A stretch of 10,669 nt of DNA from an uncultured Gammaproteobacteria bacterium (GTDB lineage: Bacteria; Pseudomonadota; Gammaproteobacteria; Arenicellales; UBA868), in the NCBI GenBank assembly GCA_913051905.1, contig CAJXBY010000086.1, positions 1 through 10,669 on the forward strand. The letters run 5' to 3'. The notes under the pieces were generated by a model. It was not told the origin of the DNA. It did not search any database and saw only the letters and a list, made by a program, of their open reading frames with translations. Of the stretch, positions 1-10,219 are shown piece by piece. A program made the translations under genes and the position numbers. Positions within the stretch are counted from its first letter, which is position 1; every line of letters begins with the position of its first letter.

Positions 1-172
1 CCGTTCGTGCCGCACGGGACGCCACCGCTTCACCTGCTAGGTCTGCTGCCAGCTTCTGGTCTGCGGCTGCAAGTGCCTGCGTCTGGGATCCAAGCCCCGT
101 CACCTTATCCGAAATAGCCGTTCGTGCCGCACGGGACGCCACCGCTTCACCTGCTAGGTCTGCTGCCAGCTT
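1..172. repeat. Perfect 55-bp direct repeat, period 117 bp (39 codons)
   Basis: Bases 1-55 and 118-172 are identical, with an offset of 117 bp, and diverge at 56 versus 173. The repeat lies inside the coiled-coil gene and encodes the segment LAADLAGEAVASRAART twice in frame. The left copy begins exactly at the window edge, so the identity probably continues outside. Perfect DNA identity, where older copies of the same unit in this protein share only protein-level similarity, points to a recent duplication or gene conversion. Confidence 0.95.
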
Positions 173-1522
173 GTCATCGGCGGTCCTGAGCTCACCTATC
201 TCAGCCATAAGCGCCAAGTTTCGGGCCTCCAGCGAGGCCATGCGTGCCGCCATTGCTTCGGCTGTCGACTGTGCAGCTGCCGCCTGTGCGGCCAGATCAG
301 ACGTCAGATTCTCGTCTGTGGCTCTCAATTCACCGATCTGTTCCGCGAGAGCCGAGGTGCTGCCCTCCAATGAAGTCACGCGTACCGCCGTCGTTTCTGC
401 TACGGCCTTTGTATTTGTTGCCTGCGCCTCCAGATCAGTCCTTAGCTGCGAACGTTCAATCTGGCCAGCTGCGACTTCATTCTGCAGCCGGACAGCGTCC
501 TGCCGCCATCGCTCGAGATCTCCCGAAAGGGTTTCAATCAATACTCTGGCTTCGTTGGTGTTTGCAAGCATTTCCTCACGCTCTGCCTTCGCACTTGCCA
601 GGACCTGCCCCAACTCAGTCAGATCTTTTGTTGAACCGGCAAGTTTCTCCGACAACGTGTCGACTCCTTCGAGAGCTTTTGTCGACTGAGCCTCCTGCCG
701 TTTAAGATCAGCCCCAAGCTGCTCGCTCTGTGTCGTAAATCCCTGAACCTGTGCAGACAGGACCGAGGTCATGTTCTCCAACGATGTCAGGCTCTGGGCG
801 AGCTGCCCGAAGTCCTGCTGCCACAATACAAACTCGCGGGAGGCAGATTCGATAGCACCCAACCTGTCGGAGATCGCTGTCTGCTCAGCTTTTATGCCAG
901 CAGTCTGCGCGGTCATCCCCGTTTTTAGTTGTTCGTCCTGAGTTTGTAGTTTCACCAGAGTTTGTTCGAGCTGAGAAAAGCGACTGCGCCACTGCTCAAG
1001 ATCGGTAGACAGGCCCTTGAGAGTTGCCAGACTATTGGTCATCGCGTCCCGCGCGGCAGCCGTCTGATCAGCAATTTGATCACGCTCCGTACGAAGACTC
1101 GTCAATGTCTGCCCTAACTGGTTAAAGTCGCTTCGCCACTGCTCAACATCACCTGCGAGCGCCTCTAGCGACGTCAAGCGCTCTGACATTAGCGCCTCGG
1201 CAGCACTGGTCCTGGCAGCCTGAGCCGCGAGGTCTGTCCTTAACTGTTGACTCTCGCCCTGTAATGCCTCGTCCCACGTCGAAAGCTCGGAAGAGCGCGA
1301 CTCGAGGGATACCACCCTTTCCGTGATGGCGGTCCGGCCCGTACGAGCCTCAGCGATCTGCCCCTCCAGATTCTTCTGCAGCTCCAGATTATCGGCTCGA
1401 TGAAGATCAGCATCATTCTGAACGTAAAGAACACCGACGATACCGGCAACAGCCAGTAGGACAACCGCACTCCATAATCCCGCAGACCCTGTCAATGCAC
1501 TTGGTTGCTGTTTTTCAGCCAT
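1..1522 (-). CDS. Membrane-anchored repetitive coiled-coil protein, partial (C-terminus beyond left edge)
   Basis: An uninterrupted minus-strand frame runs from ATG at 1522 off the left edge, giving 507 visible residues and no stop. A Shine-Dalgarno GAGAGG (1534-1529) lies 6 nt before the ATG. Residues 1-16 are short and polar. Residues 17-34 form one hydrophobic helix (LWSAVVLLAVAGIVGVLY), so this is probably a single-pass inner-membrane anchor with the rest in the periplasm (orientation inferred). Everything after about residue 45 is Ala/Gln/Glu/Leu/Ser/Thr-rich, free of Cys and Pro, and reads as coiled coil. Four Trp residues (129, 178, 234, 339), each followed by Arg or Gln, are spaced 49, 56 and 105 residues apart, all multiples of seven. 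From about 361 a Leu-rich unit (RTDLxAQA, then LAADLAGEA) recurs every 46, 46 and 39 residues. I recognise no named family; a scaffold, tether or envelope-spacing role is a guess. Confidence 0.85.
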   Translation of the reverse strand, partial: MAEKQQPSALTGSAGLWSAVVLLAVAGIVGVLYVQNDADLHRADNLELQKNLEGQIAEARTGRTAITERVVSLESRSSELSTWDEALQGESQQLRTDLAAQAARTSAAEALMSERLTSLEALAGDVEQWRSDFNQLGQTLTSLRTERDQIADQTAAARDAMTNSLATLKGLSTDLEQWRSRFSQLEQTLVKLQTQDEQLKTGMTAQTAGIKAEQTAISDRLGAIESASREFVLWQQDFGQLAQSLTSLENMTSVLSAQVQGFTTQSEQLGADLKRQEAQSTKALEGVDTLSEKLAGSTKDLTELGQVLASAKAEREEMLANTNEARVLIETLSGDLERWRQDAVRLQNEVAAGQIERSQLRTDLEAQATNTKAVAETTAVRVTSLEGSTSALAEQIGELRATDENLTSDLAAQAAAAQSTAEAMAARMASLEARNLALMAEIGELRTADDKLAADLAGEAVASRAARTAISDKVTGLGSQTQALAAADQKLAADLAGEAVASRAART

Positions 1523-1899
1523 AAACAACCTCTCAGCGGTCAGACCCGTCATCCTTCAGTAACCGGTGTTTAAGTATTTTTCTCATACACATTCGGAGCA
1601 CTTTTGAAAGCGTATTATCCGGTTATTGAGCCAGACTATCCACCACAGCAATCCTGATTTGGCCCTCAAAGTCAATAACATCCTAAAAACCCCAGAATTT
1701 TGGGTTCTGTCGGCCGAGGCGATTGGTTGCAAATTAGGATTTGGCTCAATCCAGAGCGCTCCAGTGCCAGCAGACTGCCGAACTTATGGTTGGAGGGGGA
1801 ATTCTTCTGAGCAACCACCTTTCGTTGGGCGAGCCAAATCCATACGACCTGTTCCGGTCCCTGCTCAGACTGAAACGGTGTTCTTTTGGGACTGGGCAG
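1523..1899. other. 377-bp gap without a supported gene
   Basis: This gap lies between the end of the DUF3096-like gene and the start of the coiled-coil gene, both on the minus strand, so it should hold the promoter of the latter; I could not pick a convincing -35/-10 pair. A plus-strand frame starting with TTG at 1626 and a nested ATG frame at 1741 have no ribosome binding site and no recognisable protein character. An 11-bp perfect inverted repeat is listed separately. There is no intrinsic terminator with a clear U-tract. Confidence 0.6.
1737..1841. repeat. 11-bp perfect inverted repeat, arms 83 bp apart
   Basis: GGATTTGGCTC (1737-1747) is matched by its reverse complement GAGCCAAATCC (1831-1841). 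Nine bases of the left arm region (TGGCTCAAT, 1742-1750) also have an inverted partner, ATTGAGCCA, at 1625-1633. No transposase, target duplication or strong long stem accompanies them. They could be the ends of a decayed small element, or chance. Confidence 0.5.
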
Positions 1900-6661: not shown

Positions 6662-8872
6662 TCAGTGACGGTCGGCACCCCGGTAAACCACAGGCCCTGC
6701 TTTGGTCCCGCTCGGGCCAGTTGGATCTGGCGGTGTCGGTCGGTAATTTGGCCGTATAACCTGACCTTGTGCTTTTCGGGTAACCGCTTCGGAGACTGTT
6801 TCGAGTTTTGAAGCGGCAGCAAGCGCGGCCTTCCGGTCTGCCTGCTGGGTGTTCAGATTGTTAGGCACCGGCATCATGCTCGCCAAATAGTAGGCAATTT
6901 TCTGCCTGGCAGGATCGACATGGTTCGCCGTGTCGAGTTCACGTTTGTTCACACCCTTGACCGGTGTGACACAAGAACCGTTAATCACCTCAAGGTCAAA
7001 CCACCATTTTTTTGCCGGATTTCGCGTCCCGTTGCCCAGCCAATCGTCAATTCTGACCGCCAGCGGCACCAGCATCGGTTTGAGTGCAGGTGCATTGATT
7101 CCACACCAGCTAGCAATCCGTTCGACAATTGAACCGTCGGCCGTCACGACTTTATTCAACGGACAGGTCTTCATACAACGCCCACAAGCGGAGCCCCGGG
7201 CATTGGTGAGGCGGTAACGTGTACAGCGCTCAACGTCGGGTTTCCACATCTCATAGCCGTTGAACATGACCTTACCCCCCCATGAAATTGCATCACAGGG
7301 ACACTCACGGGCGCATTTCAAGCAGCGGCTACAGAAATACTGCAGGCCGAAGTCAATCGGCTTGTCGACCTCTAGTGCCATATCGGTGGTCACGACGACC
7401 GTTTTCAACCTGGGCCCGACAAAAGGATTCAGGACCAGCTCCCCGATGCGTGACAACTCACCGAGTCCAGCAAGCAGCATCAGCGGAATGTGCAATACGT
7501 CGCTGTCTACGTTGGTCTGCGACCGGGCCGGAAACCCCAGCTTGCGCAGCATTTCCGCCATGACTCCAGCGATTTCTGCACCCCGCAGGTAGGCTCTCAT
7601 TGACTGTGTACCCGAGATCCAGTCATCACCCGAGGCCCCTTCCATGGTGTCAAATTCCTGATCGATCAGCATGACGATCGCATAGCGGTGTTTGATTTCG
7701 ATCGGTTCTCCGTCTGCTCCGTGCGAATACCAGGCATAAGGAGGAATTTCACAGATTCCGGTGACATCAGATCCCAGAAGATAGGACAATGATTTGACAG
7801 CCCGTGCGTTTGAACCCGCATCGGACAGCGCCTCCTGGTTGGCCAAAGAATCAGACTCACCCTCCTGCACCGGCACCATCGACCGCATCGATGCCATCAT
7901 TCCGGCCGTGTGGGGTTGCTTGAAGGCAAATCGATGCCGTTCCTTCTGTGCCTTGGGACCCAGATCACCGCGCAGTGCCCGATCGAAAAATGCGGCTCTT
8001 TTTGAAACCCTTGGGACCTCATCATCGATAATCAGTGTTGTCGGACGCTCAACCCGTTTGACACTTTCCATCGGGTATGGCCCCAGATGGGTCGCCCGTC
8101 TGTTTAGGCGGTTCCGCTCCCGTCCGGACGTCGCACCGTTACGCCCAAGCCAGTAACTCAGCCCTTTCGACCTGAGCGCTTTCTCCGCCAGTGGCTGGTC
8201 TGTCTGCAGAGCGTAATCAGTGGTGACTACTGCCAGCGAGAATCCTCTGGTGATAAACGGGTTGCACAACGTTGCTTCACACCGGACATTGAGGCCAGCA
8301 AGCACCGACAACCGTCCGGCATCCACTGAACCGGCACCCCTGACATGAGCCCTGCCCGACCAGCCGAGCTGAGAGATGTGACCGGCCAGACAGACCGCAA
8401 TACCGCCTACCCGGCAATCCGCAGCCTCCTCCACTGCCTTTTCGATCCAGCTCCTGGCCGGATTATCGGGTTCAGGAATGCGGCCGTGTTCGAGTAGCAG
8501 GACGACTGCGAAGCTGTGTGACAGGGGATCGGACCCTTTGCACCACGCGTTGGACGGCATACGGCAGATGCCCACCTGCGAGGCATTCATGAAATAACTA
8601 TAACCCTTGACATCGACCATCCGTCGGTACGGATCATCGGGTACGGGTGCTCTGACCGGGGCCGGTTCCGACACTGCGTTACGCACAAAGATGTCAAGGT
8701 AATCCCTCAACGCCTCCGCCAACGGCCCCTGGGGCGCCGCGTCAAAACCCGGAGAATCTACACGGGGACGCTGTTGTTCGCGATCCGCAACAGTGGAATC
8801 CACCGGTAGGTCCTCCAGTGGATAGGGCCCTAAGTGATAGGGCCTATTCCGCGAAGGCATCCGCAGAAACAT
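6662..8872 (-). CDS. Reductive-dehalogenase-like corrinoid/iron-sulfur protein with duplicated corrinoid domain
   Basis: This 736-residue protein has a C-terminal half with the RdhA/QueG pattern: a corrinoid-binding domain (about 355-510, with LAGLGELSRIGELVLNPFVGPRLKTVVVTTDMAL) followed by two [4Fe-4S] motifs, C514-x2-C517-x2-C520-x3-C524-P and C550-x12-C563-x2-C566-x3-C570-P. The N-terminal half repeats the plan without clusters: HLGPYP at 13-18 and 262-267, VGIC/TGIC at 100 and 371, LAGL at 191 and 467, NPF at 204 and 482, VVTTD at 215 and 493. The first copy has GLNVRCEAT where the second has GLGELSRIG, so it is probably non-binding. There is no twin-arginine signal, no RdhB-like anchor gene and no C-terminal flavin/ferredoxin domain, so it should be cytoplasmic and need an external electron donor. 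Substrate unknown. ATG at 8872 directly follows an in-frame TGA and has no clear Shine-Dalgarno. Confidence 0.82.
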   Translation of the reverse strand: MFLRMPSRNRPYHLGPYPLEDLPVDSTVADREQQRPRVDSPGFDAAPQGPLAEALRDYLDIFVRNAVSEPAPVRAPVPDDPYRRMVDVKGYSYFMNASQVGICRMPSNAWCKGSDPLSHSFAVVLLLEHGRIPEPDNPARSWIEKAVEEAADCRVGGIAVCLAGHISQLGWSGRAHVRGAGSVDAGRLSVLAGLNVRCEATLCNPFITRGFSLAVVTTDYALQTDQPLAEKALRSKGLSYWLGRNGATSGRERNRLNRRATHLGPYPMESVKRVERPTTLIIDDEVPRVSKRAAFFDRALRGDLGPKAQKERHRFAFKQPHTAGMMASMRSMVPVQEGESDSLANQEALSDAGSNARAVKSLSYLLGSDVTGICEIPPYAWYSHGADGEPIEIKHRYAIVMLIDQEFDTMEGASGDDWISGTQSMRAYLRGAEIAGVMAEMLRKLGFPARSQTNVDSDVLHIPLMLLAGLGELSRIGELVLNPFVGPRLKTVVVTTDMALEVDKPIDFGLQYFCSRCLKCARECPCDAISWGGKVMFNGYEMWKPDVERCTRYRLTNARGSACGRCMKTCPLNKVVTADGSIVERIASWCGINAPALKPMLVPLAVRIDDWLGNGTRNPAKKWWFDLEVINGSCVTPVKGVNKRELDTANHVDPARQKIAYYLASMMPVPNNLNTQQADRKAALAAASKLETVSEAVTRKAQGQVIRPNYRPTPPDPTGPSGTKAGPVVYRGADRH

Positions 8873-9495: not shown

Positions 9496-9924
9496 CTAGA
9501 TGTTAAGTGTCTGGGGCTGCTGAGCCTGGTGCACGTGCTCCGGTCCGGCATAGACACGCAGTTTCAGAAACATTGCCCGCCCCAAGGCGTTCTTGGGAAG
9601 CATTCCTTTGACTGCTTTCTTAATGACCTGTTCGGGGCGACGTTCCAACTCATCGGCCAGACGGGTTTCACGAATCCCGCCCGGATAACCGGTGTGGCGG
9701 TAGTATTTCTTTTTCTCCGCCTTATTGCCCGTCACCCGGATCTTTGCCGCGTTGACCACGATGATGTGATCGCCGGTATCAACATGCGGTGTGTATTCGG
9801 GTTTGTGCTTGCCGCGCAGACGCGTCGCAATCTCTGTGGCCAACCGGCCCAGTACCTTGTCCGTGGCATCGACCAGATACCAGTCACGCTGTACGGATTC
9901 CGGTTTTGCCGAGTAAGTGCGCAT
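9496..9924 (-). CDS. rplM: 50S ribosomal protein L13 (uL13)
   Basis: This 142-residue large-subunit assembly protein is of standard length. Typical segments are [20 protein letters not shown] at the start, [39 protein letters not shown] and [24 protein letters not shown]. It is the first gene of the rplM-rpsI unit. No good Shine-Dalgarno is visible before the ATG at 9924; the upstream bases are U- and C-rich. A putative promoter at 9989-9961 would give a leader of only about 30 nt. Confidence 0.98.
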
Positions 9925-9960: not shown

Positions 9961-9989
9961 ATGTTACAAGATGGGGCCGGTACTGACAA
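9961..9989 (-). promoter_or_regulatory. Candidate sigma70 promoter of rplM-rpsI
   Basis: On the minus strand TTGTCA (9989-9984, five of six matches to the -35 consensus) is separated by exactly 17 bp from TAACAT (9966-9961, four of six to the -10 consensus). The expected start near 9954 would leave about 30 nt before the rplM ATG. It lies downstream of the intrinsic terminator at 10069-10036, as expected if rplM is transcribed independently of what is upstream. Confidence 0.5.
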
Positions 9990-10035: not shown

Positions 10036-10069
10036 AAAAAAAAGCACAGCGCTTCAACTTGCTGTGCTT
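10036..10069 (-). terminator. Intrinsic (rho-independent) terminator
   Basis: A perfect 9-bp stem joins AAGCACAGC (10069-10061, minus strand) to GCTGTGCTT (10050-10042) across a 10-base loop. It is followed on the minus strand by a run of eight T, of which the first two close the stem (10043-10036). It would end minus-strand transcripts arriving from the promoter at 10219-10191 or from glcF, ahead of rplM. Confidence 0.85.
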
Positions 10070-10184
10070 AAACCACCAAAGGAGGATGGAGGAGTCTTTC
10101 GTTTACAGCGTAATTCTGTTTCCCTTTTTCCTACCCGGCTTAGTGTCCAGGTGTTCGATCTCTAGTGCCAAGTAATTAACTAGT
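10036..10184 (-). ncRNA. Candidate small RNA with anti-Shine-Dalgarno-like motifs
   Basis: A promoter (10219-10191) and an intrinsic terminator (10069-10036) bracket about 150 nt that contain no credible reading frame. The predicted RNA begins with an AU-rich 5' end. It then has a stem ACCTGG/CCGGGT (10152-10147 with 10138-10133, 8-nt loop), a possible weak ACAG/CTGT stem (10119-10105), and a CU-rich unpaired stretch with CTCCTCC (10094-10088) and CCTCCTTT (10085-10078). The terminator stem follows. The exposed CCUCC motifs beside a terminator resemble regulatory RNAs that pair with ribosome binding sites. The alternative is a transcription attenuator in a long rplM leader. The family is not recognised. 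Confidence 0.5.
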
Positions 10185-10190
10185 TTTATT

Positions 10191-10219
10191 ATTATTCACT
10201 AATACTCTTAAATAGTCAA
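10191..10219 (-). promoter_or_regulatory. Candidate sigma70 promoter for the putative small RNA
   Basis: On the minus strand TTGACT (10219-10214, five of six) and AATAAT (10196-10191, five of six) are separated by a 17-bp AT-rich spacer, the best promoter-like pair I saw in the window. The predicted start is near 10184. It lies about 110 bp after the glcF stop codon. Confidence 0.6.

What the first reader, a model, noticed from the sequence alone, without database searches (positions are those of the whole stretch)
10036..10219. Unannotated small-RNA unit with two anti-Shine-Dalgarno motifs between glcF and rplM
Seen: a 5/6 + 5/6 promoter with a 17-bp spacer (10219-10191), a non-coding stretch, and a 9-bp stem plus T8 terminator (10069-10036); a second promoter (9989-9961) then serves rplM. 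Known: several proteobacterial small RNAs expose CCUCC loops that pair with ribosome binding sites. Inferred: the CTCCTCC and CCTCCTTT motifs (10094-10078) just before the terminator stem are the targeting region, giving a broad translational repressor. A leader attenuator of rplM is the main alternative.
Basis: partly seen in the sequence, partly recalled or inferred. Interest (0 to 1): 0.7.

Follow-up and report, generated by a model that had tools for sequence, protein, structure and literature searches.

The report
Anti-Shine-Dalgarno small RNA beside rplM
The stretch most likely encodes a small regulatory RNA that copies the part of the ribosome which reads mRNA start signals; the kind is known from one bacterial group, and here it is found in another, usually just before a ribosomal protein gene.

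Summary
In detail: 10/12 promoter, CTCCTCC and CCTCCTTT, 9-bp terminator with T8, separate rplM promoter. Rfam RF02278 ("Betaproteobacteria toxic sRNA"; double-hairpin kind) matches 10097-10036(-), 38.9 bits, E 4.7e-5, below its gathering score of 50. The window's nearest L13 relatives are gammaproteobacterial. A covariance model from 12 rplM-linked copies matches 146 of 369 genomes of that class at E<=1e-3, 114 at E<=1e-6; in 21 genomes without an rplM-linked copy, 2 and 0. RF02278 passes its cut-off in 2 of 369. Of 109 loci inspected, 77 have rplM downstream on the same strand (median 154 nt), 30 have none nearby, 2 are cut by contig ends. A consensus promoter precedes it in 107 of 129 cases, against 4 of 121 control stretches. 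Tandem copies, copies not followed by rplM, and a distinct rplM promoter favour an autonomous trans-acting sRNA over an rplM attenuator. Many relatives also carry a 5' hairpin; the window's own 5' part is longer and weakly folded. Expression, targets and Hfq dependence are untested. Filed as an rplM-linked variant of a known kind.

The parts
10191..10219 (-). sRNA promoter: -35 TTGACT (10219-10214), 17 bp, -10 AATAAT (10196-10191)
   Evidence: Only 10/12 match in the window; promoter of this kind, consensus TTGACA-n10-AATATTAGAnAAT, in 107 of 129 upstream stretches of copies
10098..10184 (-). predicted 5' part of the primary transcript (start near 10184 inferred from the -10), outside the conserved core; weakly structured here
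   Evidence: Inferred; 5' segment fold z -0.9 in the window, median z -3.25 over 91 copies
10036..10097 (-). conserved sRNA core; match to Rfam RF02278, 38.9 bits (gathering 50); R1 match 10096-10033
10088..10094 (-). anti-Shine-Dalgarno site 1, CTCCTCC, 5' of and partly within hairpin 1
   Evidence: CTCCTCC in 91 of 128 distinct copies
10073..10089 (-). hairpin 1, CCAUC/GGUGG, with site 2 in its loop
   Evidence: RNAalifold on A2 and, with 4 of the 5 pairs, on A3; only one-sided changes in A2 and A3, one pair with two-sided change in A4
10078..10085 (-). anti-Shine-Dalgarno site 2, CCTCCTTT, in the loop of hairpin 1
   Evidence: CCTCCTTT in 98 of 128 distinct copies; mean unpaired probability of CCTCCTT 0.92 in cores of 53 loci
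10036..10069 (-). intrinsic terminator: 9-bp stem, 10-nt loop, T8
   Evidence: 9 of 9 pairs show two-sided changes over 101 distinct copies, the outermost pair forming in only about half
9961..9989 (-). separate rplM promoter, TTGTCA-17-TAACAT followed by G+C-rich CCGCGCC
   Evidence: TAGTATCCGCGCC is also present before rplM in L001, which lacks the sRNA there
9496..9924 (-). rplM, ribosomal protein L13
   Evidence: PF00572
9067..9465 (-). rpsI, ribosomal protein S9
   Evidence: PF00380
10326..10667 (-). 3' end of a glcF-like gene (upstream neighbour), CCG domain
   Evidence: PF02754

Best explanation
An independently transcribed, trans-acting small RNA of the RF02278 (double-hairpin, anti-Shine-Dalgarno) kind. 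A sigma-70-type promoter at 10219-10191 starts an RNA of about 149 nt that ends at the terminator at 10036, possibly trimmed to the conserved ~62-nt 3' core. The core offers two CU-rich sites, one before and partly in hairpin 1 and one in its loop; the latter has the letters of the anti-Shine-Dalgarno tail of 16S rRNA (recalled). It most likely pairs, probably with Hfq at its U-tail, with the ribosome binding sites of several mRNAs and blocks their translation. rplM next door has its own promoter and, in the window, no Shine-Dalgarno match of 3 nt or more, so it is not the likely target. Shown here: anatomy, homology, conservation, linkage. Inferred: transcription, processing, Hfq, targets, repression.
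For: Rfam match E 4.7e-5; RF02278 gives 0 of 14 control genomes at E<=1e-5. R1: 146 of 369 class genomes at E<=1e-3, 114 at E<=1e-6, against 2 of 21 and 0 of 21 genomes picked for lacking an rplM-linked copy. R1 also has a match in both genomes over the RF02278 cut-off, G226 and G113. Promoter in 107 of 129 against 4 of 121 control stretches. Terminator: 9 of 9 pairs with two-sided changes. Site 2 unpaired 0.88 in predicted full RNAs and 0.92 in cores, mean of 53 loci. Not tied to rplM: 30 of 109 loci lack it, several with the next long frame convergent (e.g. L107, L117, L122, L138, L154); tandem copies in L121, L135, L152, L153. Known RNAs of this kind are expressed and are predicted or shown to act at ribosome binding sites: ncS27 (PMC5688073, passages), S17 (PMC11722255, passages and sections); similar design in NmsRs (PMC5362039, passages).
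Against: No transcript data for this organism or any gammaproteobacterial copy. Score below the Rfam gathering cut-off. In the predicted 149-nt fold site 2 is mostly paired (0.21 unpaired; 0.94 in the 62-nt core), so activity may need trimming. Hairpin 1 has two competing registers and little two-sided covariation. The best L13 relative, L001, lacks the RNA before rplM; its genome has only weak matches elsewhere (29.7 bits). At E<=1 RF02278 rings in 11 of 14 control genomes, so weak single hits mean little.
Confidence: 0.82

Rival explanations
1. Cis-acting leader attenuator of rplM-rpsI: transcription from 10219 ends at the terminator unless a signal allows read-through.
For: The RNA lies upstream of rplM on the same strand in 77 of 109 inspected loci, which wants an explanation.
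Against: 30 of 109 loci have no rplM within about 1.5 kb, some with convergent next frames; tandem copies; distance to rplM ranges 87-1395 nt with a separate rplM promoter motif in between; L001 has rplM and that motif without the RNA. Alternative anti-terminator folds were not searched for.
Confidence: 0.08
2. A sub-case of the best explanation, not exclusive of it: an autonomous sRNA whose terminator leaks, so that rplM is partly co-transcribed and the linkage couples the RNA to ribosome synthesis.
For: Conserved linkage; opposite discriminator G+C of the two promoters, 0.32 (78 of 85 loci) against 0.80 (82 of 85).
Against: A run of six or more T in 119 of 128 distinct copies; no transcript data; linkage absent in 30 of 109 loci.
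Confidence: 0.25
3. Accidental promoter-terminator pair without a function in trans.
For: Elements alone are not above chance in this window; no transcript data.
Against: Similar core in over a hundred loci from many genomes, with covarying terminator and conserved promoter.
Confidence: 0.04

Closest known systems
Rfam RF02278, Betaproteobacteria toxic small RNA (double-hairpin RNAs ncS03, ncS05, ncS27, ncS62 of Burkholderia cenocepacia)
   Same: Two hairpins, the second a terminator with U-tail; CU-rich unpaired stretches; several copies in some genomes; alignable over the whole 64-position model. Per PMC5688073 (passages): expressed, predicted to pair at ribosome binding sites, ncS27 overexpression attenuates growth
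   Different: Below the gathering score (38.9 of 50); in a gammaproteobacterium; 4 nt shorter in hairpin 1; usually upstream of rplM; many copies have an added 5' hairpin (68 of 91 with z below -2), whereas three of the four B. cenocepacia RNAs are described as almost entirely two hairpins
S17 / S17S of Bordetella pertussis (PMC11722255, preprint; passages and sections 5, 13, 30 read)
   Same: Promoter with 17-bp spacer, 190-nt precursor trimmed by RNase E to a 67-nt form that starts near a C/U-rich loop between predicted stem-loops, Hfq-dependent, pairs at ribosome binding sites
   Different: Lies between a glycosyltransferase gene and coq7, not at rplM; its letters were not compared here
NmsRA/NmsRB of Neisseria meningitidis (PMC5362039, passages)
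   Same: Two anti-Shine-Dalgarno motifs per RNA; translational down-regulation of several mRNAs; two sibling copies
   Different: Neither letters nor neighbours were compared here
sX13 of Xanthomonas (PMC3771888, search listing only)
   Same: Gammaproteobacterial sRNA discussed with C-rich motifs
   Different: Not compared here; by recall a different structure with several C-rich loops

Membership tests
RF02278 | Score at or above the curated gathering score of 50 bits | tested here: not met
   38.9 bits in the window; the best copy under the cut-off in the class sample reaches 48.7 (G140, rplM-linked as L159)
RF02278 | Significant full-length match to the covariance model | tested here: met
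   E 4.7e-5, model positions 1-64 of 64
RF02278 | Two hairpins, the 3' one an intrinsic terminator with U-run | tested here: met
RF02278 | CU-rich stretches in unpaired positions | tested here: met
   in the 62-nt core site 2 is 0.94 and site 1 0.50 unpaired; in the predicted 149-nt form only 0.21 and 0.45
RF02278 | Found in Betaproteobacteria | tested here: not met
   By my reading of their titles, all 80 kept L13 loci (best of 577) are Gammaproteobacteria
RF02278 | Expressed as a short RNA; inhibits growth of E. coli when cloned | not testable with these tools
   Needs a bench test. For S17, a close relative, overexpression only modestly affected E. coli
rplM leader attenuator | Directly upstream of rplM with no other promoter in between | tested here: not met
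   30 of 109 loci without rplM nearby; own rplM promoter motif
NmsR siblings | Sequence relatedness to the Neisseria sibling pair | not tested
   Two motifs are present, but no sequence comparison was made; the window shows one copy

The most novel reading that the evidence does not exclude
Across much of Gammaproteobacteria an sRNA carrying a copy of the 16S rRNA tail is wired beside the rplM-rpsI promoter as a growth-rate switch: its promoter has an A+T-rich discriminator while rplM's is G+C-rich, so that when starvation signals turn ribosome synthesis down the RNA stays on, covers strong Shine-Dalgarno sites and shifts the remaining ribosomes towards mRNAs with weak ones, such as rplM itself in the window.
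Probability: 0.2. Interest if true: 0.75.

Novelty: new variant of a known kind. Interest (0 to 1): 0.58.

Why it matters
An sRNA kind catalogued as betaproteobacterial is, by this model, in roughly 30-40% of sampled genomes of the class of G003 (presumably the window's class), while the Rfam cut-off is passed in 2 of 369. The conserved position beside rplM-rpsI links a likely ribosome-binding-site blocker to a ribosomal protein operon and gives a directly testable question about control of translation initiation. The model and the aligned copies would let others annotate it.

Tried and rejected
rplM attenuator: rejected as the main reading. rplM as a selected non-target: leaders of 13 loci with the RNA have shorter 16S complementarity than 67 without (mean 2.9 against 4.2, p 2e-4), but lineages are not independent, and of 85 loci with the RNA 62 rplM leaders have 4-5 nt complementary to the RNA, so I make nothing of it. 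Other register of hairpin 1: fits slightly worse (91.5 against 96.7% of cells paired in A2). Mobile origin: the 71-base query had no match on plasmids at E<=0.01 and the exact 22-base core none in viral contigs; weak tests. Counting promoters of score 7 or more before rplM is no evidence by itself (shuffled 220-nt stretches average 7.5); I rely on the repeated G+C-rich element seen by eye.

L100 was dropped as the same place as L076. The toxic-gene paper behind RF02278 (Kimelman 2012) is not held; I know it only through papers citing it.

Full report
What is there. On the minus strand, between the end of a glcF-like gene and rplM, the window holds TTGACT-17-AATAAT (10219-10191), CTCCTCC (10094-10088), CCTCCTTT (10085-10078), a 9-bp terminator stem with T8 (10069-10036) and a second promoter (9989-9961) before rplM. 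By counts within the window alone these elements are not above chance; the 149-nt unit folds no better than shuffles (z -0.49), its 62-nt core does (z -2.36).

Homology. Scanning the whole window at E<=5 gives one match among 4227 Rfam families: RF02278, Betaproteobacteria toxic sRNA, at 10097-10036, full length, 38.9 bits, E 4.7e-5, gathering score 50. A scan of 431 bases at E<=10 adds five weak matches far below their cut-offs. The window is gammaproteobacterial by its nearest L13 relatives (best 80 of 577 kept; the best, L001, 75% identical, is an Acidiferrobacteraceae MAG). No whole genome is held for it.

Relatives at the same place. Of the 80 fetched rplM loci, 11 have upstream of rplM a core that aligns with CTCCTCCATCCTCCTTTGGTGGTTT plus terminator, and two more (L006, L031) a weaker one; titles include Arenicella, Candidatus Thiodiazotropha taylori and an Acidiferrobacteraceae MAG. 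The other 67 have no match over 18.4 bits in the fetched DNA; they include Halomonas, Alteromonas, Marinobacter and L001. L001 reads, by eye, with the same GlcF-like ending before rplM, but without the RNA. The gene before the RNA differs between loci, so the RNA goes with rplM rather than with glcF.

Model and spread. Twelve of these sequences (window included) were aligned (A2) and made into covariance model R1. R1 has a match at E<=1e-3 in 146 of 369 genomes sampled from the class of G003 (the genome of L076), 114 of them at E<=1e-6 (my count of the rows). As a control I searched 21 of the 67 genomes whose rplM locus lacks the RNA: 2 of 21 match at E<=1e-3 (29.7 and 28.6 bits, one being L001's genome) and none at E<=1e-6. 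So matches below about 30 bits are doubtful. RF02278 at E<=1e-5 finds 38 of 369 genomes of the same class sample, 2 over the cut-off, and 0 of 14 control genomes; at E<=1 it rings in 11 of 14 controls. R1, trained only on rplM-linked copies, also has a match in both genomes over the RF02278 cut-off; for G113 at the same place (38.3 bits), for G226 the place was not listed. The two groups thus detect each other.

Linkage. I fetched the surroundings of the better matches: 109 loci of L089-L198 (L100 dropped as a repeat of L076), plus 20 weaker ones; a few genomes give two loci. The model covers the RNA alone, so neighbours are separate evidence, although its training set came from rplM loci. Of the 109, 77 have rplM on the same strand downstream, none on the other (median 154 nt, 74 within 500 nt, longest 1395), 30 have none within about 1.5 kb, 2 are cut by contig ends. 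Of the 20 weaker, 9 have rplM and 11 not. In several of the 30 the next long open frame is convergent (e.g. L107, L117, L122, L138, L154; frames only), so the RNA can hardly be a leader there. Tandem copies occur: three in L135 and L152, two in L121 and L153; second copies in L177, L189, L190 and L196 are weak, 23-32 bits. G368 has eight matches, seven of them listed on two contigs, perhaps in part an assembly repeat.

Anatomy. Over 106 aligned copies (101 distinct), 9 of 9 terminator pairs show changes on both sides and 94.3% of cells pair, the outermost pair being the poorest; hairpin 1 pairs in 98.8% of cells, but 4 of its 5 pairs vary on one side only and one never varies, so it is consistent but weakly tested. 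In the 30 matches of A4, mostly weaker and some doubtful, one hairpin-1 pair changes on both sides. A3 and A4 were fitted to the structure, which favours it; the MAFFT alignment A2 was not, and RNAalifold chose the same hairpin there. Another register of hairpin 1 is possible and is what a single-sequence fold gives. CTCCTCC is kept in 91, CCTCCTTT in 98, the exact 21-base core in 60 and two CCTCC motifs in 110 of 128 distinct copies. In the 53 copies with exact core and a promoter score of 9 or more, site 2 is unpaired with mean probability 0.88 in the predicted full RNA and 0.92 in the core; site 1 0.47 and 0.48. The window differs: site 2 0.21 in the full RNA, 0.94 in the core. This would fit activation by trimming, as reported for S17 by RNase E (PMC11722255, abstract and sections), but it is inference.

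Promoters. The best TTGACA/TATAAT match scores 9 or more in 107 of 129 upstream stretches (4 of 133 dropped as too short or identical), against 11.6% of dinucleotide shuffles and 4 of 121 native stretches further upstream. Consensus of the 89 with a 17-bp spacer: TTGACA-n10-AATATTAGAnAAT. The six bases after the -10 are 32% G+C (78 of 85 loci) for the RNA and 80% (82 of 85) for the best promoter-like match before rplM; I ran no shuffle control on the latter. From established knowledge, G+C-rich discriminators go with stringent control; whether that applies here is untested. Between promoter and core, 91 copies have a 5' segment of 25-110 nt with median fold z -3.25, 68 of 91 below -2, i.e. usually a further hairpin of varied sequence; the window's 90-nt segment is not so structured (z -0.9).

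Mechanism. Known relatives: B. cenocepacia double-hairpin RNAs are expressed, ncS27 overexpression attenuates growth, silencing has the opposite effect, and predicted interactions cluster at ribosome binding sites (PMC5688073, passages; PMC4603805, passages). H. seropedicae has four (PMC7011215, passages). S17 is Hfq-dependent and directly represses a target; in E. [quoted passage not shown] NmsRs down-regulate TCA-cycle enzymes through anti-Shine-Dalgarno motifs (PMC5362039, passages). By analogy the window's RNA most likely blocks translation of several mRNAs. Its rplM leader shows no match of 3 nt or more to the 16S-tail complement or to the sRNA complement, so rplM is an unlikely target here.

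Novelty. Searches for rplM with small RNA and anti-Shine-Dalgarno (3 papers, listing only), 'upstream of rplM' with sRNA terms (the phrase is in none of the 20 listed of 92), RF02278 (4 papers) and toxic or double-hairpin RNAs with Gammaproteobacteria (none) showed no description of this rplM-linked form; the library lacks most subscription journals. I call it a new variant of a known kind: same working principle and probably homologous, but below the family cut-off, in another group, with a conserved genomic place and, in many copies, an added 5' hairpin.

Noticed in passing
L001:2481-3000: The best L13 relative of the window keeps a GlcF-like ending (read by eye) and the rplM promoter motif but has no copy of the sRNA there; its genome has only weak R1 matches (29.7 bits) and a weak RF02278 one (28.2 bits, L087).
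   Followed up: partly
L135, L152, L153, L121: Tandem arrays of two or three copies of the sRNA; G368 has eight matches on at least two contigs.
   Followed up: partly
L236, L242, L245, L248, L006: rplM-linked copies in which CTCCT or CTCCTCC stays but hairpin 1 and its loop motif have diverged, sometimes with what look like compensating stem changes.
   Followed up: partly
L059, L061, L062, L071, L072: Marinobacter loci have CCTCC motifs followed by a T-run about 70 nt before rplM, not matched by R1; perhaps an unrelated leader.
   Followed up: no
L093, L117, L122, L131: Copies not at rplM lie beside tgt/queA-like genes (by recall of the sequences, no family search made).
   Followed up: no
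window 6662-8872 (-): 736-aa protein with a sub-threshold 4Fe-4S match (PF12838); by recall it resembles a reductive-dehalogenase-like protein.
   Followed up: no
window 2-1552 (-): Long open frame of coiled-coil, repeat-rich make-up running off the window end.
   Followed up: no
L200:1501-1566: RF02278 match over the cut-off (54.5 bits) before an open reading frame on the same strand, ilvA-like by recall; no rplM in the locus.
   Followed up: no
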